Made by a program: the position numbers and the translations under genes. From Desulfotignum sp. (GTDB lineage Bacteria > Desulfobacterota > Desulfobacteria > Desulfobacterales > Desulfobacteraceae): a DNA stretch of 46,631 bases. Below the pieces are notes generated by a model. That model was not told the DNA's origin, ran no database searches, and worked only from the letters and a program-made list of their open reading frames with translations. Below are positions 3,299-22,104 of the stretch, one piece after another (within the stretch, counting starts at the first letter, position 1; every line of letters begins with the position of its first letter). The DNA lies in NCBI GenBank assembly GCA_021737695.1, contig JAIPDL010000025.1:1-46631 (forward strand), written 5' to 3'.

Positions 3299-4120
3299 AT
3301 GGAAAACCTGTATGTCGTGGAACAGGGCAGTTTTCTGGCCAAAAGCGGAGACACCCTGAAAATCGTGAAAAAGGGGACGGTGCTGGATACAGTACCGGCC
3401 AAAGATTTAAAAAAACTGGTCCTCACCGGATATGTGTCGCTCACAGGCCCGGTGCTGGACTATCTGATCAAAAACCGCGTGGAAACAATTTTTCTCACGC
3501 CCACCGGCCGGTTCCGGGCAAGGCTCATGATTGATGAACACAAGCATGTGGCATTGCGGAAAGCCCAGTATGAGGGGTTGTCCGCTCCGGATACCGGCCT
3601 GGAAGTCATGAAAATCATTGTTAAAGGCAAGGTGGAAAACATGGCGGCGTTCCTGCTGCGCCGGGGCAGAGACTACAGCGAGCCGAAACTCAGGGCCGCT
3701 GCAGCAGCTCTGACATCATTGCTGACATCGTTGAAAACCACCCGGGACAAATCTGTGGTCCGGGGAATCGAAGGGGCCGGGTCCCGCATTTATTTCAGTG
3801 TATTTCCCCTGCTGATCCGGAACGATACCTTCTTCTTCAACGGCCGGAACCGCCGCCCGCCCAAAGATCCGGTCAATGCCCTGCTTTCTTTTGTGTATAC
3901 CTTGTTGACAAACGAAGTGATATCTGCCATCAAAACATGTGGGCTCGATCCCTATCTCGGGTCGCTCCATGAAATCAGCTATGGCCGGCCGTCTCTGGCC
4001 GCCTACGAGCAGATCATGCAGGGGCCTTCCGGGAACCGGAACGTGATCCAGGCCCAGGTGCGGTCTTTTGCCGACTTTCTGCTGGGCAGGGAATCATCCT
4101 ACCACCCGGTAAAATTGTAA
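3299..4120 (+). CDS. cas1: Cas1 with in-frame internal deletion, probably inactive integrase
   Basis: Cas1 is the metal-dependent integrase that, with Cas2, inserts new spacers. The N-terminal beta domain (1-90) and part of the helical catalytic domain are clear: GIEGAGSRIYF with catalytic Glu158, PVNALLSF with Asn193, and GSLHEISYGRPSLA with catalytic His224. In Cas1 proteins the LA is normally followed by a DL-E segment holding the third metal ligand and roughly 50 more residues. Here SLA jumps directly to AYEQIMQ and then the usual C-terminus (QAQVRSFADFLLG, YHPVKL). The product is 273 aa against a typical 320-340. The deletion is in frame at a GGCCG-rich stretch near 3995-4003. There is no cas2 and no interference gene. 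Bases 3652-3687 (residues about 119-129) are matched antisense by spacer 1 of the adjacent array. Family call firm; loss of activity inferred. Confidence 0.9.
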   Translation: MENLYVVEQGSFLAKSGDTLKIVKKGTVLDTVPAKDLKKLVLTGYVSLTGPVLDYLIKNRVETIFLTPTGRFRARLMIDEHKHVALRKAQYEGLSAPDTGLEVMKIIVKGKVENMAAFLLRRGRDYSEPKLRAAAAALTSLLTSLKTTRDKSVVRGIEGAGSRIYFSVFPLLIRNDTFFFNGRNRRPPKDPVNALLSFVYTLLTNEVISAIKTCGLDPYLGSLHEISYGRPSLAAYEQIMQGPSGNRNVIQAQVRSFADFLLGRESSYHPVKL

Positions 4121-4649: not shown

Positions 4650-4681
4650 TTCGCAAGGAACCTTGCTAACAATTTTTCTAT

Positions 4682-5391
4682 GGCGCATTGCCGTTTTTGA
4701 AGAAAATATCCGGGATGGGTTTGAATTTGACCCCATTGAGGTACAGGTATGGCCGGGCCATTGGCAGAACCAGGCAGGCGGTTGACAAATATATCGCTGA
4801 TTTATGGGCCACGGCGGTGTTTGATCTTGAACTCAAGATTTTCCGGTTACATCAACTGGGGATTCCCCAGGACCGGATTGCCAGAAGAGTCGGTCTGGGT
4901 CAGCAGAGGATTTCTCGGTATTTACGCCTTTTGCCACAAATAGCAAAAGGCGTAAACACGGATTTATCGAAGGGTTTTACCGTCCCGCAAGTGGCGCAAA
5001 AGCACGGCTGGCCTGAATCTCTGGTCTGATCACAGGCGTTGGTAAACGCCGGTGATTTTGACCGGTTCAAGGCACTTCAATGGGGCATTCGAACCTGGGA
5101 TGTGTGGAATTTCATGGAATGTGACCCCCGGTTCGGCGATGACTGGCCCGGCTGGCGTTTATCAATGCCGACTGGCGGGATTTCCAGAACTGCCCGGCGA
5201 AAAAAGAAAATCAGGGCCAGGCGATTTTACTGACCGATTATTATGAGATGTTTAAAAACACGGGCTGGACCCTGACCCATCTCATCCAGGCCCCCATGTC
5301 TTCGGAGCGGTTTAACGGCGGGGTGGTGTCTGCCATGCAGAAAAAAAAGATCCTCGGGGTCACCAGCCGGTATGTGATGGTTTTGAAATAA
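4682..5391 (+). pseudogene. ParB-domain DNA methyltransferase, decayed copy A
   Basis: The fragment enters abruptly inside the ParB-like domain (RIAVFEENIRDGFEF), just after the CRISPR array. A deletion joins VQVWPG to the sequence encoding RQAVDKYIADL. A recognition region follows (HQLGIPQDRIARRVGLGQQR), then a TGG-to-TGA nonsense codon after PESLV. After a restored frame (NAGDFDRFKALQWGIRTWDVWNF), a second deletion removes the SAM-binding motif and joins to an intact C-terminus: NADWRDFQNCPAKK, ILLTDYYEMFK, LTHLIQAPMSSERFNGGV and a TAA at 5389-5391. Copy C (19734-21086) retains parts missing here and vice versa. The intact ancestor would be a ParB/Spo0J-type domain fused to an N4/N6 DNA methylase, a type common on phages and mobile islands. 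Confidence 0.75.
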
Positions 5392-5394
5392 AAA

Positions 5395-5554
5395 GGAACG
5401 CCCGGTTCCAGTCGCGGCCTTTAGCTTTTAGCTGTTAGCTGAGTACTGATGGCTGAGGGCTGATGGCTTTCATATAAAACACAAGAGACAACACACCTTT
5501 TGTTTATGCGGATGTCTTAACTGACTGCGTCAATGTGTCCGTTACCCATTTATT
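5395..5554. repeat. Duplicated block with TTAGCT-rich repeats and a hicB 3' remnant (partner 21160-21295)
   Basis: From AGGAACGCCCG to ACCCATTTATTG the sequence repeats that at 21160-21295 with few changes. At 5418-5470 it has an expanded run of TTAGCT/GCTGAG/GCTGATGGC units, shorter in the partner. At 5504-5554 on the minus strand lie the last 16 codons and stop of a hicB antitoxin (ending QSVKTSA). The rest of hicB and all of hicA are deleted here but present at 21240-21832. The order methyltransferase, hicB is thus the same in both places, showing that one cassette was duplicated. Confidence 0.7.
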
Positions 5555-5698
5555 GTGGATGCCAAGGATTTTTACGTCATCAATGAATGGACGGATGCTG
5601 TCGCAAGACTGGCCGAAGATGCTGATCCCGGCAAGCCGGGCAGAGTGGCACAGAAAGATGATCCCCTCAAACAGGGGATAGCCGCATCCATTATTTAA
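5555..5698 (+). pseudogene. Unidentified C-terminal gene fragment
   Basis: An open frame of 47 codons ending at TAA 5696-5698 has coding-like composition (DAKDFYVINEWTDAVARLAE, then GKPGRVAQKDDPLKQ). It starts exactly where the hicB remnant ends, so it is probably the tail of a gene whose front was lost in the same deletion. I do not recognise the family. Confidence 0.35.
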
Positions 5699-6477: not shown

Positions 6478-6669
6478 TTACTGTTCCAAAAACCCGAGCT
6501 TTCTTAGTATCATTTCCAACGGACAGAAGTCCGTAAATCCGGACTGAGTCAGATTCAACCCGACAAAAAGCGTCAGAGCAAACCACCACGGTGAGTGAAG
6601 CAGCCCAAGCAATGCACTGATGGTAACCATAAGCCCCGGTATGATTCTCATTAATTTTTTAATCGTCAT
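6478..6669 (-). CDS. DUF2892 (YgaP-type) small membrane protein, copy 1
   Basis: The protein is 63 aa, starting MTIKKLMRIIPG after a perfect AGGAGG. One or two hydrophobic segments (IIPGLMVTISALLGLL and WWFALTLFVGLNL) are followed by the conserved FTDFCPLEMILRKLG. This is the usual DUF2892 layout, often linked to rhodanese or thiosulfate metabolism but of unknown function. This is the only complete copy of three. Copy 2 (19534-19671) lacks the start and copy 3 (21922-22071) lacks the end. Confidence 0.85.
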   Translation of the reverse strand: MTIKKLMRIIPGLMVTISALLGLLHSPWWFALTLFVGLNLTQSGFTDFCPLEMILRKLGFLEQ

Positions 6670-6699
6670 ATCTTCCTCCTGTGTATCATTTGATGAATG

Positions 6700-7190: not shown

Positions 7191-10100
7191 TCAACGGCCG
7201 TTCAAATCTGAAAAAACCGCGTCTCTCTTTCGGCAATGGGACAACAATTGCTTGAAACAGCTGTTTTTTGCCAGCAGGGATTCCGTATGGGGGATCACGG
7301 AGAAAAAAGCCTTGCTGCCGACGATCACCAGCTTTTTTCTGGCCCGGGTCATGGCGACGTTGAGCCGGTTGGGACTGTTCAGAAATTCGCTGATCAGAAA
7401 ATCCGGGTCTGACGCGGTCAACCCGAAGAAGATGATGTCCCGCTCCGCACCCTGTATCCGCTCCACCGTGTCCACCAGGGGGAGCGGGAAACCCTTTGGA
7501 GTCAGGACCTTGTCCGGGGTCATTCCTTTTGGGGTCAGACCCGCCTCCGGGATCATCTTTGAAAGCCGTTTGAGGATCTCGTTGTTCTGGGTCCGGTGGG
7601 GGGTGATAATGGCCATCCGGTCCGTAGAAACCCCGTGGCCGTAGATCAGGCGGCAGGCCAGTGCAGCCAGGAGACCCGCCTCTTCATCGGACTGCTGGGA
7701 ACATCCCTGGTGGTCAGTCAGAACCAGGGTGACCGGTTGTTCCGGATCCAGAATCCGGTCAAACCATCGGCCCGATCCCGGTGAATCCTGGTATCCTTCC
7801 CTGACAGGACCCAGGCCCAGCCGAGCCCGGGCCACTTCCGGGGCCGGGGTCAGCATACCGCCATACCAGGTTTTTGAAGAAAATGCACAGATTTCACGGT
7901 TCATCCGATAGGTGATGTTCAAGGTGACCCGGTGATATGCCGGATACCGGTCCCGTATATGGGTGAGAATGGAAGCGCTGAACTGCATCCCGTCCTTTCC
8001 CTCTTTTTCGCTCTCTTCATCCGCCCCGTTCTCTTTGTCGTCATAGGTTCCCAGGACAATGGGGGGCAGCTGGTGTTCATCCCCCAGAAACAAAAATTTT
8101 CCCCTGCCGTAAATCAGACTGAGCAGAGCCTGGGGCACCGGCACCTGGGAGGCTTCGTCAAAGATGATCCAGTCCAGGGCCAAAGGAAACCCCTGGTCCT
8201 TGCTCTTGAAAAGCGAATAAAACCCGTATCCCGTGGCACCCAGGATCAGCCAGGGCCGGGCCGGAAGATCTCCGGCATCCTGGACATATTCCACTTCCTG
8301 GCCAGGGGTGCCAGAGGCGGAGGGACAAGTTTCAGAAGACCTGTTTTCCCCCCATTTCACGCACCGGCCCGGAAAACTCCCGGACAGGTGCCGGGCGGCC
8401 AGCTGAACCACTTTTTCCAGCACCGTGTCAATGGCCTGGTGGGTCATGGCTGTGATCCCGATGCGAAGCGGTCTGCCGGCGTCATGGGCCGCAAGGATCA
8501 AGGCGATGATGATCCAGCCCAGAAGATGGGTTTTCCCGGTACCGGGCGGTCCCTGGATCAGGCCGGTACCGTACCGGAACGGCAGCATCAGGGCCTGCTG
8601 CTGGGCAGGGTTCAGCCCCCGGTCGTCTGTGGCCAGCCATTGCCCCACCCAGTCAAGGGCGGATCCCGGCTGTTCTTGAAGCGCATCGCCTGCCAGCAGA
8701 CGTCTGACATGGTCATGTTTTTCATCTGAGAACATGGCTGTGGCGGCATGGATCATCTTGTCCCGGTTCCAGTCATCCATGTCCTCTTCAAGGGAATAGA
8801 ACAGATCTTTCCGGCACTTCAGCCGGCCGGACCGGGAAACAAGCCCGACCTCTCCTTCGGCCATGTCATACTTTGCCAGGATCACGGGAAATCCGCCCTG
8901 GATATCACCCATGCCGTGAGGAACCAACTTGAGAAAGTCCCCCTGGCGGAATTTGGCTGGAAGGGTCCGGAAAGACAGTTTGAAAAGATGGAGGAACCGC
9001 CCGTCGCAGTCCAGGCGGGCATGAAGAAATGTCAGAAATCCCAGGGACCGGAACCGCTGCATCCGTTCCTCAAGGGGCTGTTCCTGGAGCATCCGGATAT
9101 CCGCGTCTTTCAACCGTTTTTCTTCCTGGATAAAGGTGATGTAGGGCAGGGCCCGTTTATCTGTCCGTTCGCTGGCCGGCCATTCCCGGATCCAGCCGCT
9201 TTCCAGACGTAACACCGCTGTGTCAAACATGTGCGCCATCACGGCAAGCCCCTGTGCCACCTCCCGGACAGCCGGTTCACCGCCGGGGGCACCGCTTTGG
9301 TGGAAAAGGGTCAACGGGGGTGTCAGGGTCTGTCTATATCCAAACACCCGGCCAAGGGTGTAAAAAGAGACCGCCCCGGGCACGGGCATGTAAAAATGGC
9401 GGAGCAGCACCTGTCTGAGATCTGTCCACGGCGAGGGCTGGGTCTGACAGAGGAAGCGACATGAATGATTCGATGTCTGCCCGGCCCACTGAATCAGTGC
9501 CCTGCGGGACCGGGAACCAAGATGAAAAATATGAGGTCCTTGACCGGAATGGATACTGTCCTCCCAGTGCCGCACCAGTTTTCCAGCAAACGTTTTCCAT
9601 ACACGGGACCGCGCATCGTCGCTCTCCATGGTCCACACTCTGGATTCGAGCACCTGCCGGGTATGCGGGTCCCACACCTGCCATCCCAGAACCCGGGGCT
9701 GCTCACTGAAATCTTCTGTTTCCACATGGATGAAAAAAACCCGGGACAGGTTGGCCGGAAACAGGTGGGTCATTTTTCCGTGAACCCGGATGCGGCCGGT
9801 TAAAAACGCATCACACCATCCGGCCAGTTTGGCCCGCTGGCCCGGAGAAAGGTGGGATTTCATGTCCGAACGGCCGTCCTCACCGCCTTCAGCCATGTTT
9901 TCCAGTACCCTGGCTGTTTTTTCCAGGGTGGTGCAGTCCAGGTCCCTCAGTGCCATCAGCTCTCCTTTGGTCAATGCGGGCAGAAACTGGATCTCTTCTC
10001 CGGTCAGGGCCTGGGCGTAACACCCGGCAAACCCTGAACAGGCCGTGCACCGGGTTTGCAGCCGGTGGTCCGCATCCGCCGGACGTTCTGACAGAATCCG

Positions 10101-13100
10101 GCCCAGGGTGTGGCACAGGCTGGGAAATGCGGCCAGGAAAGGCGTTAAATCGAACGTGTATGACTTTCCGGCTGTCAGGGACCGGTCCCCGGGTTGGGGA
10201 GAAATGATGAATCCCGTATGAGAGACCCGGGCAGGGATATGATGATCTTTCACTATTTTTTCCAGGACCTGTGCATACACGGCCACCTGCCATTTCTGAT
10301 AATACCGGGGTTCCGGGCTGCGCTTGATGTCGCCCACCTGGATCACCACCAGGTGGCGGCCGCGGTCCGGGCCGGTTTCGTCATCCACCGGTGGCAGGAC
10401 CAGCTTCAGAAGGTCCGGGATTCCCACCACTTCCATGCCGGGAAATTGCGGCACCAGCCCGCCCGTCTCAAGGCCGCACTGGGAGATCCACACCCGCCGG
10501 GATGCCGGCCCGTTCCCGGCAATGAACTGAGCCACGGTTTCTTTCAGCAGTTTCAGGCCTGCCGCCCAAACCGGTTCGCTTCGCCCTTCCCGTGCCAGTG
10601 TGACCAGAATCTCCCCCCGGGCCTCAAGAAATGCCAGCATGGCCTGCTCATGACGGACCCCCTGGTCCCGGGCAAGGCCCATAAGACCGTCCGGATCCTG
10701 AACCGAATGGTCCAGGCCCAGGTATTTCAGGAAAAACCGGCGGTGACACTGGCCAAAATACATATAGTCACTGACCATGGTGGCCGTCAGGGAACGGCCG
10801 GGATCGATACAGGGATGCCGCCATCTGGAAGAGGGGAAAAAAAGGGGGGCTGATACAGGCATTTCCTGCTGCCGTCTCTTCTGTTTTTCTGTTCCCAGCA
10901 GGGAGGCGCAGGCATCCATCTCCCAGGCCGGGGAGTCATCCGCCCACTCTTTCGCCGGGTGAGGTCCGGCATGATCGGCCATGTCACCGGAAACGATATC
11001 TGAACTGGACGACCGATACCGGGCAAACACCTGCGCCACCCGAAGGTCATACAGAAAATCCGTGATCTCCGCCACCATCAGTGCTCTGGGCAGGGTTTTC
11101 CAGAAAATACTCACCGGCACCAGGCCCCGGACCGCCTGGAAATGGGACGTAACCCACGCATGGAAGGCGGTTTTGTCCACCGGCAGATCCAGTTTCTCGA
11201 ACCGGACCCACCGGGAACATTCCACCCCGGTTTCAGTGGCCGTGACCGAAAGGTCTTCGTCCTGGAAACGGTCCCGAATGGCCCATTCCAGCACCAGGTT
11301 GCCGGCCGCGCCCAGAAAGGTGCAGAAACAGAACCGTTCATGGCTGCCGGGGACCACCTCGATGCCGTTGGCCAGCACCACGGGTCCGGCATAAACAGCC
11401 TGTTCCCAGCCCAGCAGCCGCCGGGTCCGGGACATCAGGCCGCTGTCATTGGTTATGGCACCGGAAGTGAGAATCCGTTTCATGGCCTGGGCCACTTCAA
11501 AAGACACCCGGGGACCCAGCCCTACCCAGACCAGGTCTTTTACGTCCTTTCCCGCCCAGGGCCGGGCCACCACCCTGCCGGGATCTCCCTCTTCCTGAAT
11601 TTTCAAAATCTCCAGGCCCCGGCCTGAAAGCTGGACCCGGTCTCCCACATCCATCTGGGAGACGATGGACTGGGGGATGTCTGCCACGGGTTTTTCCGAA
11701 ACCTCCAGAAGGTATTCCTTTTCCGCTTCCGGAAAATTTCCCCAGATCTTTCTGGCCAGAAAATGGTTCCGGTACTGCCAGCCGCCCCGGACCAGGCCGG
11801 GACGCGGACAGGGCTTGAGCCATCCCTTTTTTTCAAGGGACTCGAAAATGACAGGCAGCCGCTTTTCCGGGTCCGGAAAAAGGGAATCCAGGGCATTCAG
11901 GGAGATTTCCTTTTTTTCATACAGGCAGGAGATCACCTGCTGGCTGAGAACACTTGGCAGTTCTTTGGGAACCGGTGCTTCGATCCTACCTTTACGCCCC
12001 AGTTCCAGAAGAGCCAGGAACCGGACGACCTGGGTGCCCGCGGCGTCTCCGGCACAGATCCCCCAGAAATTAATGACCCCTTCCCGGCGGTTGGCCCGGC
12101 CGATGCGCTGAAGAAAAGAGGACACAGACCCGGGGGGCTGAAACAGCAGCACCGCATCCACATCCCCCACATCGATCCCCAGTTCCAGGGTGCTGGTGGC
12201 GATGCACAGGGCATGCGGGTTTTTCCGGAACCGGTCCTCGGCTTTTTTGCGTTCCAAAGGCTTGAGGTTGGAATAGTGAAGTTCCGTGACCCCCCTAAAC
12301 ACCCCGGACCGGCCAAGGATCCCGGAGAGCCGGTCGCAGGCGGACCGGCTGTTGCAGAAAAGCAGAATTTTGCGGTAGTGCCAGGCATGGTACAGATCGT
12401 TGAGAAGGGCGGTCATCTCCGTTTCGCCGTTTTTCAGGTGAATCAGCCGGGCGGAGATCCTGCGGCCGGTGCCGGCTTTGATGGACACTGTCCCGGGCCT
12501 GAAATTAAAAAATTCCATCACTTCTTTGACCCTGGCGATGGTGGCGGACATGGCGATCTTCTGGATCGGGGCCCGGGTCCGTCTGGACAGCCGGGTGAAC
12601 AGGCAGGCCAGGTGCCGGCCCCGGTACTGGTGGACCAGCGGATGAACCTCGTCGATGATCACAGTTCCCACCCGGGACAAAAACCGTTTCAGGCCCTTGT
12701 TGGCGCTTCCCAGCATCACGTCCAGGGATTCCGGGGTGGTGAACAGGATATCCGGCCGGTGTTTCCCGGCCTGCTTCAGGTCCCCGGTGCGCACCGCCAG
12801 AGTCAGTCCCAGACGCCCGGCGATCACGGGATCGAACCGCCGCACCAGGTCTTTTGCCAGTGCTCGGGTGGGAATGATATACAGGATTCCATGGGTCCTG
12901 CCCGAGGTGATCACCCGCTCCAGGCAGGGGGCTAGCACGGCTTCGCTTTTGCCCGATCCTGTAGCCGCCTGGAGGATCAGGTCTTTGTCCGCCAGGATGG
13001 GCGGGATGACCTGCACCTGGACAGGGTGAAGACGGGTGAAGGCACCGTAAAAGGGACGGAATGTGTTGGGCAGAAGCAACAGGGGATCATGGGCCTGCGC

Positions 13101-13109
13101 CATGGGCAT
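7191..13109 (-). CDS. Giant helicase-nuclease-helicase fusion (Lhr-like SF2 + Cas4-like nuclease + Dna2/Upf1-like SF1)
   Basis: The protein is 1,972 aa with no interruption. Residues 1-350 are an SF2 helicase: Walker A ATGSGKS 50-56, DEVH 153-156, SAT 188-190, then ATSTLELGIDVGDVD 304-318 and QRIGRANR 334-341, the Lhr/BrxHI pattern. Residues 360-700 are an Lhr-like accessory region. Residues 770-1035 are a RecB/Cas4-type nuclease: Cys788, His820, Asp899 (GIPDLL), Asp927-x-Lys929 (GDIK), Gln941-Tyr945, then Cys1021, Cys1024 and Cys1030, enough for a 4Fe-4S cluster. Residues 1120-1250 may be a degenerate RNase H-like segment, as in TM0106-type proteins. Residues 1495-1935 are an SF1 helicase: GPPGTGKT 1520-1527, DEAS 1651-1654, GDEHQLPP 1676-1683, QGAERD 1886-1891, VAMTRARKK 1918-1926. 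All catalytic motifs are kept. Its start codon overlaps the upstream ATPase stop (TGATG). It likely unwinds and degrades DNA at the direction of the ATPases. Domain calls firm; defence role inferred. Confidence 0.9.
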   Translation of the reverse strand: MPMAQAHDPLLLLPNTFRPFYGAFTRLHPVQVQVIPPILADKDLILQAATGSGKSEAVLAPCLERVITSGRTHGILYIIPTRALAKDLVRRFDPVIAGRLGLTLAVRTGDLKQAGKHRPDILFTTPESLDVMLGSANKGLKRFLSRVGTVIIDEVHPLVHQYRGRHLACLFTRLSRRTRAPIQKIAMSATIARVKEVMEFFNFRPGTVSIKAGTGRRISARLIHLKNGETEMTALLNDLYHAWHYRKILLFCNSRSACDRLSGILGRSGVFRGVTELHYSNLKPLERKKAEDRFRKNPHALCIATSTLELGIDVGDVDAVLLFQPPGSVSSFLQRIGRANRREGVINFWGICAGDAAGTQVVRFLALLELGRKGRIEAPVPKELPSVLSQQVISCLYEKKEISLNALDSLFPDPEKRLPVIFESLEKKGWLKPCPRPGLVRGGWQYRNHFLARKIWGNFPEAEKEYLLEVSEKPVADIPQSIVSQMDVGDRVQLSGRGLEILKIQEEGDPGRVVARPWAGKDVKDLVWVGLGPRVSFEVAQAMKRILTSGAITNDSGLMSRTRRLLGWEQAVYAGPVVLANGIEVVPGSHERFCFCTFLGAAGNLVLEWAIRDRFQDEDLSVTATETGVECSRWVRFEKLDLPVDKTAFHAWVTSHFQAVRGLVPVSIFWKTLPRALMVAEITDFLYDLRVAQVFARYRSSSSDIVSGDMADHAGPHPAKEWADDSPAWEMDACASLLGTEKQKRRQQEMPVSAPLFFPSSRWRHPCIDPGRSLTATMVSDYMYFGQCHRRFFLKYLGLDHSVQDPDGLMGLARDQGVRHEQAMLAFLEARGEILVTLAREGRSEPVWAAGLKLLKETVAQFIAGNGPASRRVWISQCGLETGGLVPQFPGMEVVGIPDLLKLVLPPVDDETGPDRGRHLVVIQVGDIKRSPEPRYYQKWQVAVYAQVLEKIVKDHHIPARVSHTGFIISPQPGDRSLTAGKSYTFDLTPFLAAFPSLCHTLGRILSERPADADHRLQTRCTACSGFAGCYAQALTGEEIQFLPALTKGELMALRDLDCTTLEKTARVLENMAEGGEDGRSDMKSHLSPGQRAKLAGWCDAFLTGRIRVHGKMTHLFPANLSRVFFIHVETEDFSEQPRVLGWQVWDPHTRQVLESRVWTMESDDARSRVWKTFAGKLVRHWEDSIHSGQGPHIFHLGSRSRRALIQWAGQTSNHSCRFLCQTQPSPWTDLRQVLLRHFYMPVPGAVSFYTLGRVFGYRQTLTPPLTLFHQSGAPGGEPAVREVAQGLAVMAHMFDTAVLRLESGWIREWPASERTDKRALPYITFIQEEKRLKDADIRMLQEQPLEERMQRFRSLGFLTFLHARLDCDGRFLHLFKLSFRTLPAKFRQGDFLKLVPHGMGDIQGGFPVILAKYDMAEGEVGLVSRSGRLKCRKDLFYSLEEDMDDWNRDKMIHAATAMFSDEKHDHVRRLLAGDALQEQPGSALDWVGQWLATDDRGLNPAQQQALMLPFRYGTGLIQGPPGTGKTHLLGWIIIALILAAHDAGRPLRIGITAMTHQAIDTVLEKVVQLAARHLSGSFPGRCVKWGENRSSETCPSASGTPGQEVEYVQDAGDLPARPWLILGATGYGFYSLFKSKDQGFPLALDWIIFDEASQVPVPQALLSLIYGRGKFLFLGDEHQLPPIVLGTYDDKENGADEESEKEGKDGMQFSASILTHIRDRYPAYHRVTLNITYRMNREICAFSSKTWYGGMLTPAPEVARARLGLGPVREGYQDSPGSGRWFDRILDPEQPVTLVLTDHQGCSQQSDEEAGLLAALACRLIYGHGVSTDRMAIITPHRTQNNEILKRLSKMIPEAGLTPKGMTPDKVLTPKGFPLPLVDTVERIQGAERDIIFFGLTASDPDFLISEFLNSPNRLNVAMTRARKKLVIVGSKAFFSVIPHTESLLAKNSCFKQLLSHCRKRDAVFSDLNGR

Positions 13110-14392
13110 CAGCCGTGCCGGTCCTGCTGTGCCAGGTCCAGCTGGTTGATCAGAACCCGCAGTTTCATGCGGGATTCAGCCCGGGTGTGCCTGGACAGGA
13201 CCCGTGCCGATTCCTGTTCCAGGGTCTCTTTGTCCGGTTCCCATGCATAGGCTTTGCCGTGGAGGACCACAAGCCTGCGGATCAGGTCCTGCCAGTCCCG
13301 GGCCGACAGATCCTGGAGCAGATGGATGTTGAGGGCCTGCTTCCAGGCCCTGTGGTAATTGCGCGCAAAGCAGGGGACCGGTTCCGGCGCTTCCGCGCTG
13401 TTTTTCCGCCTCCGGGGCGCCCGGCTCCGGTCATAAGGTTCTTCCGCCACCAGAGTGAAAAAATCATGGGTAAAGGCAAACACCGGGAAAAGACCCCGGC
13501 TCCCGGTGTCGGGACAGACAAGCTCATGGAGGAGTTCATAGCTTTTGCTGCGGCTGGTGATGCGGGTCTGTCCGATGGACTCTCCCTCATCAAACAACAC
13601 CATCCAGCCCCTGTACCCCATCGTCTTCAACAATTGGGCCAGCCCCCTGACGGCGGCCAGGTATTGGGCCGGATCGTTACAAACCAGGGAATGATCTTTG
13701 TAAAACGGCACCTGGCGATAATGGAACACCGCCTTGAGGCGGTAGGCCGGGATCTCTTTTCCCATGAGGGCGTTTTTCAGTATCCATGGAAATTCCCGGG
13801 GCCTGAACCGGGCGTGCTTTTTGAGTTTCCGTTTAACGGGGGGAAGGTCCATGTTGGGCGATGCCATGGCAGCCAGAATGGCCCTGAACCGGTGGGGCAG
13901 GTCCCCGGGGATGAGATCTTGAAGGGTTCTGTCCCGATTGCCGGGTTGATTCAGCCAGTGATCCGTTGTCTTTTTCCAGACATCTGTAAAGCTGTTCTGC
14001 CCGTCCGGAAAGGTCATGGCCCCCATCAACGCCCGGTACACGGCTTTGAAATCTTGGAACGGGGTCTGCCGCGGGTCCAGATTGATGCTGCTGACCACAA
14101 AATTTTCAGCCAGAGCCCGCTGCTTCAGATAGGCGAGACTGTGGGATTTGCCCTGCCCATAGGCCCCGCAGACACACACATGGCAAGGCCGGCCCGCTTC
14201 AAGCCTTGCCACCCCCTGGTCGAACACCTGATCCAGCTTTTCTTTGCCCGAGGTAAGCCATTGAACCCCTAACGGATCGAACAGCCCGTCCCTGATCCGC
14301 TCCACGGCCCGCCTGAGGAAAAAGTTGTCCGTCCCGTTGACAAGGGCCGCAAACGATGCGGCATCCATATGGTCCGCCACATGATCCACCAC
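13109..14392 (-). CDS. BrxD-like (DUF2791) P-loop ATPase 1
   Basis: The protein is 427 aa. Walker A is GAYGQGKSHS (76-85) and Walker B is WMVLFDEGES (263-272). Around these are the features of the BrxC/BrxD ATP-binding family: FFLRRAVERIRDGLFDP before the P-loop and SYELLHELVCPDTG after Walker B. The C-terminal third is helical with a winged-helix-like RDWQDLIRRLVVLHG. In BREX loci BrxD-type ATPases accompany BrxHI helicases. Here the gene directly precedes the helicase fusion, with overlapping stop and start. It starts 3 bp after the stop of a second ATPase of the same family, so the two may form a hetero-oligomer. No pglX, pglZ or brxC-sized gene lies nearby, so this is not a standard BREX system. 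Confidence 0.82.
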   Translation of the reverse strand: MVDHVADHMDAASFAALVNGTDNFFLRRAVERIRDGLFDPLGVQWLTSGKEKLDQVFDQGVARLEAGRPCHVCVCGAYGQGKSHSLAYLKQRALAENFVVSSINLDPRQTPFQDFKAVYRALMGAMTFPDGQNSFTDVWKKTTDHWLNQPGNRDRTLQDLIPGDLPHRFRAILAAMASPNMDLPPVKRKLKKHARFRPREFPWILKNALMGKEIPAYRLKAVFHYRQVPFYKDHSLVCNDPAQYLAAVRGLAQLLKTMGYRGWMVLFDEGESIGQTRITSRSKSYELLHELVCPDTGSRGLFPVFAFTHDFFTLVAEEPYDRSRAPRRRKNSAEAPEPVPCFARNYHRAWKQALNIHLLQDLSARDWQDLIRRLVVLHGKAYAWEPDKETLEQESARVLSRHTRAESRMKLRVLINQLDLAQQDRHG

Positions 14393-14395
14393 AGG

Positions 14396-15697
14396 TTAAG
14401 AATCCCAGGTCGGCTGCAACTGTTTCATCTTTTCCGCTTCCATCTGCTGCCGGGTTTCCACCATCTGACGGGCCATGTCCATGTCTTTAGGAGATGTACC
14501 CTGTTCCGCCAGATCCAGGATGCTGATCAGCTGCTTGATGAACAGGCGGACCTCACTGATCACGCCCATTCGTTTCTGGCTGTCGCAGATCTGCTCCATC
14601 ACGCTGTCCGTGACCATCTCTTCGGGATGCCAGCGAAAGGCGATGCCATGAAGGGTCCGCAGGGTCCGGCCTAAGTCCAGCAGCTCTTCGGTCTTAAGCG
14701 GGGTCTGGTGAAGGTCCACCAGCACGCCCCGGTAATTGAGGCGTTTTGCATCACCGATGGACCGGACCCGGCTCCACAGGGCATCGTAGGATTTGAATCC
14801 TTTTTCCGACATCAGCACATCCGGTATGATGGAAAAAAACAGGTGCAGATACCGGGCTGTCTCGCTGTTGTCGATGAACAGCCGGACATTCTCATAAGCG
14901 GCGTTGCGAATGGTCGTGCTCATGGTCACCACCGTCTCCATCTCGTCCAGAAGAAGGATCAGGCCCTGGTGGCCGGTATGGCGCAGAAACAGGATCAAAG
15001 AATTCATGAACTGCCGGGCGTTGCCCTTGTTCAGAAACTCATAGATCTGGAAAGGCTTGAGTTCCCGTTTGGTGACCTTGCCTCCTTCAAACCAGTGCAT
15101 CAGAATTTCCCTGTCCGCATCCCGGCGTTCTTTGTCCTCCCCGTCCGCCAGGGGGGCGAACTGGTTGTGGACCAGGGCGGCCAGGGCATTGGCGAAACTG
15201 ATGTCCATCTCCGGAATCTCTTTGAACTGCCCGGCCAGGGCCTGGTATGATGGTCGGGCATCCGGCCCCTGTTCTTTGTCCGGGGCCTGCTCCAGCTGGT
15301 CCAGCCATGCGGTCAGCAACGCCCGGATGCCGGTACCGGCAAAGGTTCCCCTAAGCTGCCGGACAATGGCCTGGTAAACAGTCTCGAATTTATGGATGGG
15401 CACCTCCCGTGTCAGGACCACAAAGGAGACGGCAAATCCTTTTTCCAGGGCCAGGTGCCGGACCACGGACATGAAATGGGTCTTTCCATCCCCGTAATCC
15501 CCGCTGATGAACCGCACCTTGGCCCCGCCCTTTGCAATATAATTGTCCAAGTCATCCTCGATATAGGAAAGCCACTTCTGCCGGCCCACGGTGAACACGG
15601 GGACATATTCCACAGGCACGCTTCCCTTTCGCAGCCCCTCGATGATGGCTCTGGCCTGGAAAGGCTCTAACACCTCGATCGCTTCCAGAGAGATCAT
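14396..15697 (-). CDS. BrxD-like (DUF2791) P-loop ATPase 2
   Basis: The protein is 433 aa. Walker A is GDYGDGKTHF (66-75) and Walker B is GLILLLDEMET (245-255). The N-terminus (EPFQARAIIEGLRKGSVPVEYVP) and the block after Walker B (NAAYENVRLFIDN) are typical of the DUF2791/BrxD family, where ATPases open with a short helix pair that reads as REALRSG-VP in many members. It shares this architecture with the next gene but is clearly diverged, so the pair is an old duplication. It overlaps the upstream gene by 4 bp (ATGA). A coupled pair of different BrxD-type ATPases suggests a mixed ring or a sensor-motor division of labour, which is inference. Confidence 0.85.
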   Translation of the reverse strand: MISLEAIEVLEPFQARAIIEGLRKGSVPVEYVPVFTVGRQKWLSYIEDDLDNYIAKGGAKVRFISGDYGDGKTHFMSVVRHLALEKGFAVSFVVLTREVPIHKFETVYQAIVRQLRGTFAGTGIRALLTAWLDQLEQAPDKEQGPDARPSYQALAGQFKEIPEMDISFANALAALVHNQFAPLADGEDKERRDADREILMHWFEGGKVTKRELKPFQIYEFLNKGNARQFMNSLILFLRHTGHQGLILLLDEMETVVTMSTTIRNAAYENVRLFIDNSETARYLHLFFSIIPDVLMSEKGFKSYDALWSRVRSIGDAKRLNYRGVLVDLHQTPLKTEELLDLGRTLRTLHGIAFRWHPEEMVTDSVMEQICDSQKRMGVISEVRLFIKQLISILDLAEQGTSPKDMDMARQMVETRQQMEAEKMKQLQPTWDS

Positions 15698-16545
15698 GAC
15701 ACTGATTCCTGTTTTTTATGAAAAGAGATGGCGCTGATCTGGCGCAGCTCCCCTTCCGGGTCCAGAAGCCACAGGGCCTTGCTCCGCCCCGGGGTGAAAT
15801 GAATGTCATATCCGTCCGAGGTCCCCCCGGTATCGGACTGAAAATAGCGCCACAGGTCCACGGAAAACTGGTCCAGACTGTATCCTTTGAATTTCCCCTT
15901 GTCCATGTTCTGGAAAAACGTTTTGGGCTGAAGGGAAATCACATAGGCCAGGTAAAAGGTCTGCATGGAAACGGGCCTTCCCGCCGGCAGATCCTCTTTT
16001 TCCAGGATCTCCAAATAAACCCGGCACAGGGAATTGATGAACTGCACCGGATCGTAAGGAGAGTCGTACAGCTGTTTTTTCAACCGGAGCACCGCCGCGA
16101 GTATCCGCCGGGGATCGATGGATTTGAGCACCTTTTTGTTGATCTTTGTGGTACGGCTGCTGAAATCGATCTCCCCGTCAATGCCTTTTAACACGCTAAA
16201 CCGGGGGAAATCCATCTCAATGGGTAGCCCGGCGTCTTCGCACTGTTGGGTCAGATCCGCTATCAGATCCATGCGGTATTGTTCCACCTGTTCATGGGCA
16301 TAGGCTCCCAGGGCCTCGAACACAGGGCCACAGGATGCCAGGTCTTCATCCTGGCGGATATCCTCGGCCGGTTTGCTTCTCAGCAGTTCATCCAGGCGGA
16401 GAAAATCATCTCTTCCCGCACATCGGATGCACAGCTGGATAAAATCCGCTTTTTTCTGCTTCTGGTTCAGGTCCCTTTGAAAAGGCTGGACGATCTGTTT
16501 CAAATCTTCTTGAATCCCCTCAAGAAATTGGTTCGGTTCCGGCAT
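15694..16545 (-). CDS. Unknown 283-aa protein, first gene of the ATPase-helicase operon
   Basis: No known family is recognised. The protein is soluble, without signal peptide or membrane segment, and mostly helical in its first 130 residues (FLEGIQEDLKQIVQPFQRD, HEQVEQYRMDLIADLTQQCED). A mixed segment follows (GIDGEIDFSSRTTKINKK), then SLCRVYLEIL, and a C-terminal beta-rich part (GYSLDQFSVDLWRYFQS, YDIHFTPGRSKALWLLDPEGELRQIS). The RBS is AAAGGGG before ATG 16545. It is co-translated with ATPase 2 (ATGA overlap), so it probably works in the same complex. In some published ATPase-helicase defence systems, such as Shango, the third component is a TerB-domain protein. I cannot see TerB motifs here, so the comparison is only positional. 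A target-recognition or adaptor role is a guess. Confidence 0.75.
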   Translation of the reverse strand: MPEPNQFLEGIQEDLKQIVQPFQRDLNQKQKKADFIQLCIRCAGRDDFLRLDELLRSKPAEDIRQDEDLASCGPVFEALGAYAHEQVEQYRMDLIADLTQQCEDAGLPIEMDFPRFSVLKGIDGEIDFSSRTTKINKKVLKSIDPRRILAAVLRLKKQLYDSPYDPVQFINSLCRVYLEILEKEDLPAGRPVSMQTFYLAYVISLQPKTFFQNMDKGKFKGYSLDQFSVDLWRYFQSDTGGTSDGYDIHFTPGRSKALWLLDPEGELRQISAISFHKKQESVS

Positions 16546-16613: not shown

Positions 16614-16645
16614 GTCCGAATTACCGCTTACAAGCAGGAAGAGCA

Positions 16646-17028
16646 GATGGAAACGATCAATGCTTTTTTTCAGGAAAATGAAATTTGTGGAATATCATTG
16701 ACACCCCGGGGGGTGTTTTGAGTACACATATCCAGGTGCAGGTGTTGATACAACCATCAGCGGACCATTTTTGGAAGCCATGCCAACAAAACGACTCACT
16801 TTCCAGGATCTTTGGGGATACCGAAAAAAAACGCCGACCGCGGCAAACGACCTGGACCTGATTCTGGGATCCGTGATTTCCCTCCCGCTGACCTACTGGC
16901 GGAAAAACTTTTTCATCAAAGGTTCCGGCCGGATCCGGACTATCTGGCAAGGGTCAGGTACCAGATCCTGGATGCGGCCCAAAAGGCTGGAGGTGATCCA
17001 GCAAATGAGGATTTATTCATTCATCATT
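16646..17028 (+). pseudogene. ParB-domain DNA methyltransferase, decayed copy B (5' part only)
   Basis: The piece starts METINAFFQENEICG after GCAGGAAGAGCAG, the same context as copy C at 19734. It keeps the first 70 codons (LTFQDLWGYRKK), then a run of eight A (16823-16830) shifts the frame. Coding resumes as FPPADLLAEKLFHQRF. A large deletion then joins RPDPD to a fragment reading VRYQILD, and the sequence stops being recognisable before 17028, where the toxin gene of the opposite strand ends. It is non-functional. Confidence 0.7.
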
Positions 17029-17421: not shown

Positions 17422-17660
17422 TTCAATGCATCCCATTCGTTTTCATCCACAACCGGTTCCAGAATATCGCCGATGATTTCTATCTGATCTCTGTAGCTGC
17501 CAATCCAGGCTTGATTATTTTCCGGGACCGGGGGGCGGGTCACCAGTGCATAGGGTTCCCCCCTTTTTGTCACGATAATGGACATCCCCGTATTTTTCAC
17601 CTGGTCTATGATTTTAAGGCATGTTGCCTTGAATTCCGATATTGAAATCGTTTGCGTCAT
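17418..17660 (-). CDS. Phd/YefM-family antitoxin
   Basis: The protein is 80 aa. It starts MTQTISISEFKATCLKIIDQ after a strong GGAGGTGATGTC leader. The N-terminal Phd/YefM DNA-binding fold ends at RGEPYALVTRPP, and an acidic tail (GDILEPVVDENEWDALK) should bind the toxin. It is coupled to the PIN toxin by a 4-bp overlap. A truncated near-identical paralogue lies at 2072-2215. Two TTGACC/TTGACT hexamers 14 bases apart upstream may be an operator or an overlapping -35 site. Autorepression is typical of the family and inferred here. Confidence 0.88.
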   Translation of the reverse strand: MTQTISISEFKATCLKIIDQVKNTGMSIIVTKRGEPYALVTRPPVPENNQAWIGSYRDQIEIIGDILEPVVDENEWDALK

Positions 17661-17837
17661 GACATCACCTCCAGTTTTTACTATAAATAATATAGTCAAT
17701 TTTTCTGGTCAAGTCCAATCATTTGCATATTTTTTTAAATATTTCGCATCCAGTGCCGGATAAATCAGAGCCTGCTGAGAAGATGGCGGTTCATAAAAAA
17801 TGCATGTAAGAATTCAAACAACTTCCATGAGAAGGCT

Positions 17838-19533: not shown

Positions 19534-19671
19534 TTACTGTTCCGAAAACCCGAGCTTTCTGAGTATCTTTTCCAACGGACAGAAATCCGTAAATCCGGAC
19601 TGAACCAGATTCAACCCGACAAAAAGCGTCAGCGCAAAACAGCATGGTGAGTGAAGCAGTCCAAGTAATGC
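19534..19671 (-). pseudogene. DUF2892 membrane protein, copy 2, start missing
   Basis: The minus-strand sequence encodes the last 43 residues of the DUF2892 protein (LHSPCCFALTLFVGLNL, then FTDFCPLEKILRKLG) and its TAA at 19534-19536. Homology stops near 19671, where it changes into the region upstream of methyltransferase copy C; the first 20 residues and RBS are lost. Its downstream flank (ATATGTTACTGTTCC) is the same as at copy 1. Confidence 0.75.
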
Positions 19672-19733
19672 TCGGACTGCTGGGAACATCCCTTGAAAAT
19701 TGTTCTGTTACATCTCACAAGCAGGAAGAGCAG

Positions 19734-21086
19734 ATGGAAACGATCAATGCTTTTTTTCAGAAAAATGAGATTTGTGGAATGTCATTGACACCCCGGGGGT
19801 ATTTTGAATACACATATCAAGGTGCAGGTGTTGATACAACCATCAGCGGACCATTTTTGGAAGCCATGCCAACAAAACGACTCACTTTCCAGGATCTTTG
19901 GGGATACCGAAAAAAACGCCGACCGCGGCAAACGACCTGGATCTGATTCTGCCATCAGCGATTTCCCTCCCGCTGACCTACTGGTGGAAAAACTTTTTCA
20001 TCAAAGGTTCCAGCCGGATAAGGATCCGGTTGATGTGAGTGCCATGAAAGACGGTGTCATCAAAATTCCGATTTCAGATTCAGATATTTTCCTGGATGAG
20101 TCCATTTATCCCAGGGAAACGATTGATCACCGGCGCATTGCCGTTTTTGAAGAAAATATCCGGGATGGGTTTGAATTTGCCCCCATCGAGGTACAGGTAT
20201 GGCCGGACCCGGAAAATCCGGCAAAGGTCAGGTACCGGATCCTGGATGGACGCCACCGGTGGGGCGCGTATAAAAAAACGGGTGCCACCCACATCGATGT
20301 GAAGATTATCACCCTGGACCAGATGGAACCGATCCTGTATGCGGCCCAAATGGCCATCGGGCCCAAACAGCTGACGGAAACAGAAACACGCAATACGGCC
20401 CGCCGTGCGTTTCAAAACAATCCCCGACTGACCTCTGCTGAAATCGGCCAGGCCATTGGCAGATCCAGGCAGGCGGTTGACAAATATATCGCTGATTTAC
20501 GGGCCACGGCCGTTTTTGATCTTGAACTCAAGATTTTCCGGTTACATCAACTGGGAATTCCCCAGGACCGGATTGCCGGAAGAGTCGGTCTGGGTCAGCA
20601 GAGGATTTCACGCTATTTACGCCTTTTGCCACAAATAGCAAAAGGCGTAAACACGGATTTATCGAAGGGTTTTACCGTCCCGCAGGTGGCAAAAAGCACG
20701 GCTGGCATGAATCTCTGGTCTGGTCACAGGCGTTGGTAAACGCCGGTGATTTTGACCGATTCAAGGCACTTCAATGGGGCATCCGGACCTGGGATGTCTG
20801 GAATTTCATGGAGTGCGACCCACGGTTCGGCGATGACTGGCCCGGCCGGATCCCGGCCCAGCTGGTGGCGCACATCCTGTATTTTTTCTCAGAGCCCGGT
20901 GATCTGGTGCTGGATCCCATGGCCGGGGGCGGGGTGTGTGCCGATACCTGCCTTGCCATGGGCCGGCGATGCTGGAGCCTGACCCATCTCATCCAGGCGC
21001 CTATGTCTTCGGAGCGGTTTACCGGCGGGGTGGGTGATGGGAATCCGCATTTTGAACCGAATGCGAGAAGCAATCCGAACTCGTAA
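19734..21086 (+). pseudogene. ParB-domain DNA methyltransferase, decayed copy C (most complete)
   Basis: The gene starts METINAFFQKNEICGMSLTPRG. After LTFQDLWGYRKK a run of seven A (19909-19915) puts it out of frame. Coding resumes (FPPADLLVEKLFHQRF) through the ParB-like domain (IPISDSDIFLDESIYPRE, YRILDGRHRWGAYKKTG), a helix-turn-helix (SAEIGQAIGRSRQAVDKYI) and a second recognition region. A one-base change near 20690 breaks the frame after FTVPQVA. The methylase domain follows (WDVWNFMECDPRFGDDWPG, VLDPMAGGGVCADT = SAM motif I), and a deletion joins CWS to LTHLIQAPMSSERF before the frame is lost. Comparing copies A, B and C rebuilds nearly the whole gene. The intact protein would modify DNA (N4-C or N6-A), with the ParB domain perhaps giving DNA binding or CTPase function. 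Confidence 0.75.
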
Positions 21087-21159
21087 CTACGTCATGACTT
21101 TGCAGTATATAAAACATGAGATAGAACGGATAAAACTGCATCGACAAACTTTTGCCAAG

Positions 21160-21295
21160 GAACGCCCGATTCCAGTCGCGGCCTTTAGCTGTTAGCTGAG
21201 GGCTTTCATATAAAATACAAGAGACAACACACCTTTTGTTTATGCGGAAGTCTTAACTGACTGCGTCAATGTGTCCGTTACCCATTTATTGAGAC
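21160..21295. repeat. Partner of the duplicated block at 5395-5554
   Basis: The sequence from AGGAACGCCCG through TTAGCTGTTAGCTGAGGGC and on into the hicB 3' end matches 5395-5554. Here the TTAGCT-type run is short and the hicB gene continues intact. The 70 bases before it (21087-21159) hold no recognisable gene. Confidence 0.7.
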
Positions 21296-21925: not shown

Positions 21926-22071
21926 ATGAAGTCCGTAAATCCGGACTGAACCAGATTCAACCCGACAAAAAGCGTCAGCGCAAACCACCATGGTGAGTCA
22001 AGCAGTCCAAGTAATGCACTGATCGTAACCATAAGCCCCGGTATGATTCTCATTAATTTTTTAACCGTCAT
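21922..22071 (-). pseudogene. DUF2892 membrane protein, copy 3, 3' end missing
   Basis: It starts MTVKKLMRIIPG and follows the complete copy through FVGLNLVQSGFTDF, then ends with one altered residue and a stop at the junction with the vapBC operator vestige. It is 49 aa against 63. The conserved CPLEKILRKLG tail is gone. The membrane segments are kept, so a product could still be made, but function is doubtful. Confidence 0.7.
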
Positions 22072-22104
22072 CCTTTCCTCGAAGGATAAAGGATAATCTA
22101 CTCT

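What the first reader, a model, noticed from the sequence alone, without database searches (positions are those of the whole stretch)
7191..16545. Four-gene operon: unknown protein, two BrxD-type ATPases, helicase-nuclease-helicase fusion
Four coupled genes (overlaps ATGA, 3-bp gap, TGATG) are intact in an island where almost everything else has decayed, suggesting selection. BrxD plus Lhr-like helicase is a module known from BREX subtypes, but pglX, pglZ, brxA, brxB and brxC are absent. Two diverged BrxD-type ATPases in tandem, a 283-aa protein of no known family and a helicase carrying its own Cas4-type nuclease make a set I cannot assign to BREX, DISARM, Zorya or Wadjet. Positional similarity to Shango (ATPase + helicase + TerB protein) is possible but TerB is not visible. 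This is the best candidate for a new anti-phage or anti-plasmid system.
Basis: partly seen in the sequence, partly recalled or inferred. Interest (0 to 1): 0.92.

Follow-up and report, generated by a model that had tools for sequence, protein, structure and literature searches.

The report
Undescribed four-gene helicase-loader defence candidate
Four bacterial genes that travel together, two ring-type ATPases, a giant DNA-unwinding and probably DNA-cutting enzyme and a protein of unknown family, look like an undescribed system against invading DNA that is related to, but distinct from, the known BREX and Shango systems.

Summary
In detail: four intact, coupled genes (A-B-C-D) lie on the minus strand at 7191-16545. 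A (283 aa) matches no family; B and C are two diverged BrxD-type ATPases with intact Walker motifs; D (1972 aa) joins a BrxHI/Lhr-like helicase, a probable Cas4/Dna2-type iron-sulphur nuclease and a Dna2/Upf1-like helicase. The set recurs in Desulfobacterota, in the phylum of a Chlamydiae MAG and on two plasmids (one cyanobacterial). B follows A in 23 of 23 family genomes with a full A; where the set is split, C was found elsewhere in 4 of 4 genomes, D at least in part in 3 of 6. It is under purifying selection and is missing, or deleted to scraps, in close relatives. Trees separate its helicase from BrxHI and SngC; A is not the Shango TerB protein. The nuclease-helicase half of D is an add-on: other modules have a plain ~700-aa helicase. 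Some loci adjoin BREX-2, R-M, AbiE or cas1, many do not, and a paired control showed no clear enrichment. Best reading: an undescribed anti-invader module whose ATPase pair loads the helicase-nuclease on foreign DNA. Defence is inferred, not shown; DNA repair is the main rival.

The parts
15694..16545 (-). gene A, 283 aa, family without a name; long N-terminal helices and a C-terminal part that looks like a winged helix (low-confidence model)
   Evidence: no Pfam, PADLOC or NCBIfam hit; relatives in alignments A1, A2, A7; model
14396..15697 (-). gene B, 433 aa, BrxD-type (ORC/Cdc6-like) AAA+ ATPase, Walker A and B intact
   Evidence: Pfam BrxC_BrxD 4.1e-63; PADLOC BrxD 8.4e-51, SngB 2.5e-35; invariant Walker residues in 18 of 18 rows
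13109..14392 (-). gene C, 427 aa, second, more diverged BrxD-type AAA+ ATPase, Walker A and B intact
   Evidence: Pfam BrxC_BrxD 1.1e-22; PADLOC BrxD 1.7e-21, SngB 2.7e-9; invariant Walker residues in 18 of 18 rows
7191..13109 (-). gene D, 1972 aa, helicase-nuclease-helicase fusion
11019..13040 (-). D residues 24-697: complete BrxHI-like (Lhr/Ski2-type SF2) helicase
   Evidence: PADLOC BrxHI 2e-88 over 24-697, profile 22-689 of 698; best PDB relatives 5v9x 3.8e-29 and 7lhl 1.9e-28, labelled ATP-dependent DNA helicase
9930..10826 (-). D residues 762-1060: probable PD-(D/E)XK (Cas4/Dna2-type) nuclease domain with cysteines 788, 1021, 1024, 1030 and D899, D927, K929
   Evidence: Pfam PDDEXK_1 E 0.0015, under its cut-off; Foldseek top hits Cas4 8d3l E 1.1e-3 prob 0.99, AdnA, MGME1, Exo5, AddB, Dna2, from a model of mean pLDDT 56; motifs
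7281..8624 (-). D residues 1496-1943: Dna2/Upf1-like SF1 helicase
   Evidence: Dna2 5eax phmmer 3.6e-21; Pfam AAA_12 4.7e-28, AAA_11 2.8e-16

Best explanation
The operon is a distinct, so far undescribed four-gene anti-invader module. B and C form a mixed ORC/Cdc6-like AAA+ ring; A, with a helical stalk and a winged-helix-like end, is the adaptor that brings the ring to DNA; the ring loads or switches on D. D's BrxHI/Lhr-like motor opens the DNA, its Dna2-like second motor pulls on one strand and its Cas4/Dna2-type iron-sulphur nuclease degrades it. The core is A+B+C plus the SF2 helicase; the nuclease-helicase half is an added effector in one lineage. Shown: the genes, motifs, relatedness, co-inheritance, loss of nearly the whole operon in relatives. 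Inferred: complex formation, loading, DNA degradation and defence. How self is spared is not known; the window type carries no methylase.
For: Conserved gene order and co-occurrence even when split: C on another contig in 4 of 4 genomes searched that show A-B alone or A at a contig end; of 6 genomes searched with A-B or A-B-C and no D in view, 2 hold full-length D elsewhere (G626, G600), one holds fragments (G686) and 3 none found. Distance matrices of A, B, C and D (first 720 residues of D) correlate at r 0.96-0.98 in 19 loci and 0.90-0.96 in 15 long-type loci, 0 of 999 permutations as high (shared descent alone would give much of this). Walker motifs kept in both ATPases, helicase motifs kept in D. 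D forms one side of a branch (SH-aLRT 100), apart from SngC (99) and BrxHI (97). Purifying selection. Accessory status: about 9 kb deleted in a congener; two Desulfobacter-type genomes with nothing at the site and a third with a remnant. Plasmid copies: D. tiedjei about 3 kb from AbiEi/AbiEii, Aulosira directly behind a locus that I read as BREX-2. Other defence neighbours: HsdR, Eco57I-type methylases, Schlafen-AlbA. Relatives of B and D belong to BREX-2 and Shango, which act against phages (PMC12839542 and PMC10250203, sections and passages seen).
Against: Many loci, above all in the Desulfobacter-type genus, sit among genes that look like housekeeping genes (judged by eye). Paired control, 107 flank proteins of 20 modules against 107 proteins of 20 other regions of the same genomes: restriction-type or PDC families in a few members each, controls AbiEi, AbiEii and PDC-S01 in one member each; no clear enrichment. 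No copy found in phages or viral contigs, so no direct link to phages. The nuclease triad is incomplete in 4 of 13 long D proteins. In 3 of 6 genomes no D was found, and G003 shows A-B-C with 2.9 kb beyond and no D. Models are of low confidence (mean pLDDT 68 and 56). No experiment.
Confidence: 0.55

Rival explanations
1. A DNA-repair or replication-restart module: the ATPase pair loads a helicase-nuclease on broken or stalled host DNA, as AddAB, AdnAB and Dna2 do, and defence is at most a side effect.
For: D's nuclease and second helicase resemble repair enzymes: AdnA, AddB, MGME1, Exo5, Dna2. In the Desulfobacter-type genus the operon often sits at the same chromosomal place among genes that look like housekeeping genes, and gene trees group mostly by family.
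Against: Present in only 24 of 86 family genomes and 13 of 345 phylum genomes; missing from close relatives, with or without a remnant; on plasmids near AbiE and BREX-2; relatives of B and of the first half of D belong to phage-defence systems.
Confidence: 0.25
2. A subtype of BREX type 2 or of Shango that lost or replaced its other genes.
For: B and C hit BrxD and SngB models, D hits BrxHI and SngC; one module lies directly behind BREX-2.
Against: No pglX, pglZ, brxC or TerB gene among the four; A unlike SngA (hhalign probability 0.3%, 8 SngA proteins); D, SngC and BrxHI are separate groups; in Aulosira a BrxD and a BrxHI that group with the BREX ones and the module stand side by side; B (170.7 bits) and C (76 bits) lie far below the NCBIfam BrxD cut-off of 350.
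Confidence: 0.1
3. An anti-plasmid or anti-transformation system rather than an anti-phage one: D attacks DNA that enters single-stranded or with ends.
For: A Dna2/Cas4-type nuclease suits single-stranded ends (substrate recalled); patchy presence.
Against: Two of the modules found are themselves on plasmids; nothing else bears on it.
Confidence: 0.1

Closest known systems
BREX type 2 (BrxD ATPase + BrxHI helicase)
   Same: B and C are BrxD-like; D residues 24-697 cover the BrxHI profile. Rakesh and Krishnan (PMC12839542, section 24 read) suggest that BrxD may load or activate BrxHI.
   Different: No pglX, pglZ, brxC/pglY or pglW among the four genes; two ATPases instead of one; protein A; helicase separate from BrxHI in the tree; nuclease and second helicase fused to D.
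Shango (SngA TerB protein, SngB ATPase, SngC helicase)
   Same: Gene order first protein - ATPase - SF2 helicase; B hits SngB, D hits SngC. Shango is anti-phage in P. aeruginosa (PMC10250203, passages seen).
   Different: A is not TerB/SngA; second ATPase; SngB and SngC form their own groups; the SngC proteins fetched are about 720-780 aa, without a nuclease-helicase half.
Dna2, AddAB/AdnAB helicase-nucleases
   Same: Second half of D: PD-(D/E)XK nuclease with four conserved cysteines followed by an SF1 helicase; C-x2-C-x5-C spacing (seen in D; the same spacing in Dna2 is recalled); Dna2 5eax 3.6e-21.
   Different: Fused behind a complete BrxHI-like helicase and tied to A-B-C.
ORC/Cdc6-Cdt1 helicase loading
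   Same: Two ORC/Cdc6-like ATPases, a possible winged-helix partner and a helicase; the top Foldseek hits of A are Cdt1, weakly (E 0.44, prob 0.21).
   Different: The Cdt1 match is not significant; the helicase is SF2, not a hexameric ring.

Membership tests
BREX type 2 | BrxD-type ATPase | tested here: met
   B 4.1e-63 and C 1.1e-22 to Pfam BrxC_BrxD, though under the NCBIfam BrxD cut-off
BREX type 2 | BrxHI-type helicase | tested here: met
   PADLOC BrxHI 2e-88 over 24-697, but separate from BrxHI in the tree
BREX type 2 | pglX methylase, pglZ, brxC/pglY and pglW in the locus | tested here: not met
   none among the four genes or the 19 other window ORFs scanned with Pfam or PADLOC; the rest of the genome was not searched for them
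Shango | SngA protein with TerB domains | tested here: not met
   no SngA or TerB hit for A; profile comparison probability 0.3% with 8 SngA proteins
Shango | SngB-type ATPase and SngC helicase of the Shango groups | tested here: not met
   SngB (99) and SngC (99) are closed groups without B, C or D
Cas4/Dna2-type PD-(D/E)XK nuclease | D...(D/E)xK active site and four iron-sulphur cysteines | tested here: met
   window D899, D927, K929 and C788, C1021, C1024, C1030; all three active-site residues in 9 of 13, all four cysteines in 13 of 13 long D proteins; iron binding itself not testable
Cas4/Dna2-type PD-(D/E)XK nuclease | fold | tested here: inconclusive
   Foldseek best Cas4 prob 0.99, E 1.1e-3, from a model with mean pLDDT 56
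anti-phage defence system | protects cells from phage | not testable with these tools
anti-phage defence system | enriched in defence islands | tested here: inconclusive
   individual loci near BREX-2, AbiE, R-M genes; paired control without clear enrichment

The most novel reading that the evidence does not exclude
A helicase-loading immune system: a two-ATPase ORC/Cdc6-like ring with a winged-helix partner (A) recognises invading DNA by its replication or end structure and places a helicase on it, as replication initiators place the replicative helicase; in one lineage the loaded helicase has become a single-chain helicase-nuclease-helicase that unwinds and destroys the DNA.
Probability: 0.3. 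Interest if true: 0.82.

Novelty: new variant of a known kind. Interest (0 to 1): 0.66.

Why it matters
BrxD-helicase pairs recur in BREX-2 and Shango, but how they act is not settled. Here the pair stands without the modification genes of BREX or the TerB protein of Shango, with a doubled ATPase and, in one lineage, a probable nuclease built into the helicase. That gives a compact set in which the proposed loader-helicase mechanism can be tested directly, adds an unnamed protein family (A) to the defence candidates, and shows the kind in Desulfobacterota, Chlamydiae and a cyanobacterial plasmid.

Tried and rejected
Considered and rejected: A as a TerB protein; A as a named family (distant A proteins); the operon as BREX or Shango; a link to the YprA helicase systems ARMADA/BRIGADE/TALON: the preprint PMC12458937 (outline and find passages seen) does not mention BrxD, Lhr or Dna2. 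The stretch of D at about residues 1100-1490 matched no family and no solved structure. Profiles of B and C found no close solved structure, the nuclease profile none either, so the nuclease call rests on motifs, one sub-threshold Pfam match and a low-confidence fold. Phage and viral collections gave nothing. The five weak lone A-like matches (G118, G273, G248, G159, G123) show no B, C or D beside them and are not counted as modules. One exception to linkage inside the family: G003 (L038) has A-B-C and 2.9 kb beyond C without D. Literature searches for the module; no listed title or abstract start describes two BrxD-type ATPases with a helicase and a protein like A. PADLOC-DB is of 2023, DefenseFinder was not at hand and the library holds few preprints, so an earlier description is not excluded.
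Full report
Observation. Against three relatives the genes show dN/dS of 0.09-0.27 and no internal stop in 12 of 12 comparisons; ratios are higher for C and D than for A and B.

What the proteins are. A has no match in Pfam, PADLOC or NCBIfam and none of weight in the PDB. Its model (mean pLDDT 68) has long N-terminal helices and a C-terminal helix-and-strand part that I read as a winged helix; the best Foldseek hits are Cdt1 domains, but at E 0.44 and probability 0.21, so this is only a hint. B and C match BrxD (Pfam 4.1e-63 and 1.1e-22; PADLOC), are about 25% identical to each other and both keep Walker A and Walker B in 18 of 18 aligned relatives. D begins with a complete BrxHI-like SF2 helicase (2e-88, residues 24-697). 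Residues 762-1060 look like a PD-(D/E)XK nuclease: Pfam PDDEXK_1 at E 0.0015, below its cut-off; Foldseek of a low-confidence model (mean pLDDT 56) gives Cas4 first (E 1.1e-3, probability 0.99), then AdnA, MGME1, lambda exonuclease, and further down Exo5, AddB and Dna2. Cysteines 788, 1021, 1024 and 1030 are invariant in 13 of 13 long D proteins aligned; D899 is kept in 11, D927 in 13, K929 in 11, and all three in 9 of 13. The window protein keeps all. Residues 1496-1943 match Dna2's helicase (5eax, 3.6e-21). Residues about 1100-1490 match nothing.

Distribution and co-inheritance. In its own family A is found in 24 of 86 genomes: 23 full length (window included), one a fragment. In those 23, B follows A in 23, C follows in 22 of 22 where the contig goes on, D in 21 of 22 (18 with D1 to D3 all present, one of them with a frame break at a contig end; the exception is G003). 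In the phylum sample 13 of 345 genomes match: 8 have A-B-C-D (window included), 5 have only a weak lone A-like match. In the order sample 31 of 291 match, 8 of them from the family already counted; of the other 23 genomes I fetched 22 (G480, a 22-residue match, was left out), 23 loci: B lies beside A in 22 of 22 with room (in G673 and G590 A is known from the profile alone). In the most diverged modules (G307, G585, G448, G671) the second ATPase hits B better than C. Some genomes split the set. C was searched in five: in four that show A-B alone or A or B at a contig end (G493, G580, G435, G458) it is on another contig, in the fifth (G481) in the module; the three of those C contigs that I read carry no D beside C. 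D was searched in six genomes with A-B or A-B-C and no D in view: full length elsewhere in G626 (two copies) and G600, fragments at contig edges in G686, none in G676, G564 and G656, whose loci run into a contig end. In the phylum sample around the MAG titled uncultured Chlamydiae 6 of 151 genomes match: 5 have A-B-C-D, one of them with a short D, and one has only a broken remnant of A. On plasmids A occurs in 2 records by two searches: Desulfomonile tiedjei pDESTI.01 and Aulosira laxa plasmid3. Phage and viral collections gave none. Distance matrices of the four proteins correlate at 0.96-0.98 in 19 loci and 0.90-0.96 in the 15 long-type ones, 0 of 999 permutations as high; shared descent alone would give much of this.

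Two forms. D of the D. tiedjei, Aulosira, G267 and G307 modules is only about 700 aa, a plain SF2 helicase; so is D in G448 (723 aa) and in one genome of the Chlamydiae sample (718 aa), and G673 and G590 have about 530 aa. In two genomes (G381, G481) the long D lies in two ORFs, parted between nuclease and second helicase. The nuclease-helicase half is therefore an add-on, and A+B+C+SF2 helicase the core. In a tree of 31 helicases D of both forms is one side of a branch (SH-aLRT 100), SngC another group (99), BrxHI a third (97). In 50 ATPases BrxD (100) and SngB (99) are each closed groups that hold no B or C; B and C of the short and long forms do not each come out as one clean group, and long branches make that part unsure. 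Both are quick searches without bootstrap.

Gain and loss. In a congener (G063) nearly the whole operon is gone: flanks align at 90-98%, and about 9.05 kb between positions 5206 and 14253 of the intact relative L021 are missing at a joint with a 4-base overlap, leaving the first 35 codons of A and a 46-base piece near the end of D; a second, smaller stretch beyond it is missing too. The two contigs that show it are 99.98% identical and probably one place. In the Desulfobacter-type genus two genomes without the operon (G029, G023) have about 175 bases between the flanks that border it in others, and a third (G018) holds a remnant of about 370 bases of D. Whether the clean sites are losses or never filled is open. 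So it is an accessory set, and I saw it go as a unit rather than gene by gene in these cases.

Neighbours. Defence genes adjoin some modules: a locus that I read as BREX-2 (an alkaline-phosphatase-type protein, then a BrxD and a BrxHI that group with the BREX ones) directly before it in Aulosira, AbiEi/AbiEii about 3 kb away in D. tiedjei, HsdR with a probable HsdS in G671, Eco57I-type methylases in G585 and G448, Schlafen-AlbA proteins in G448 and G481, an OLD-type TOPRIM protein in G521, a shortened cas1 and PIN toxins in the window. I picked these by eye for scanning. Many others, above all in the Desulfobacter-type genus, stand among genes that look like housekeeping genes (by eye). As a control I scanned 107 proteins from the flanks of 20 modules (window and plasmids not among them) and 107 of 151 proteins from 20 other regions of the same genomes against PADLOC at E 1e-15. 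Modules: type IIG enzyme models in up to 2 members, type I enzyme, type I specificity and type III enzyme models in 1 each, PDC-S01 in 2, PDC-M04A and PDC-S68 in 1 each, besides matches that look unspecific (mads, DndA/SspA, RtcR, RecD); the output shows 25 of 89 families and not which member matched. Controls, all 16 families shown: AbiEi 1, AbiEii 1, PDC-S01 1, mad2 2, RtcR 1. I ran no statistical test; this is not a clear enrichment.

Mechanism. Rakesh and Krishnan suggest that BrxD may load or activate BrxHI, akin to replicative helicase loading (PMC12839542, section 24 read). The anatomy here fits that idea and sharpens it: a doubled ATPase, both halves active by motif, a possible DNA-binding partner, and a helicase that in one lineage carries its own probable nuclease and second motor. 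Order of events (inferred): A finds the target, the B-C ring assembles, D is loaded, the SF2 motor opens the duplex, SF1 motor and nuclease remove a strand. The target feature and the protection of self are unknown; the Eco57I-type methylases beside two distant modules could mark self there, but the window type has none.

Novelty. No model of the 2023 PADLOC library matched A, and seven literature searches (listings seen) showed no paper describing the set; DefenseFinder and most preprints could not be searched. I rate it as a new variant of the BrxD-helicase kind with a new protein family, probably anti-invader, not yet shown.

Noticed in passing
window 4668-5555 and 20118-21291; 2097-2272 and 17542-17717: Decayed stretches are duplicated on both sides of the operon, about 15.5 kb apart (blocks 81-95% identical), so the operon lies between imperfect direct repeats; one block looks by eye like part of a ParB-like gene seen at greater length in L043 17732-19168.
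   Followed up: partly
window 16621-16939 and 19708-20024: The stretch just upstream of gene A is duplicated 3.1 kb further on (92-97% identity).
   Followed up: no
window 6526-6678, 19582-19734, 21928-22080: A 153-base stretch occurs three times (67% and 92% identity to the first copy).
   Followed up: no
window 3299-4120: Shortened cas1 (273 aa, Pfam Cas_Cas1 1.4e-71, profile 1-230 of 283); in the congener G063 (L043 11448-12464) a 338-aa ORF that looks by eye like cas1 stands beside the deleted operon.
   Followed up: partly
L194, L195, L196: In G626 and G600 the unlinked long D stands beside an 833-aa PIF1-like helicase with HRDC and HTH domains (91% identical copies); tblastn at 1e-10 found it in no other locus held.
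   Followed up: partly
L127 1086-5060 and L128 11303-14785: Two distant modules with a longer A (about 367 aa) and B (about 605 aa) have an Eco57I-type methylase upstream, in L127 with a DprA-like gene between; perhaps a modifying subtype.
   Followed up: no
L067 9150-9509 and L110 7299-7679: PemK/MazF-type toxin genes lie between C and D or just behind the module.
   Followed up: no
L123 and L124 (G435): One genome holds two modules, a long-type A at a contig end (its C on another contig) and an Aulosira-type A-B-C-D.
   Followed up: partly
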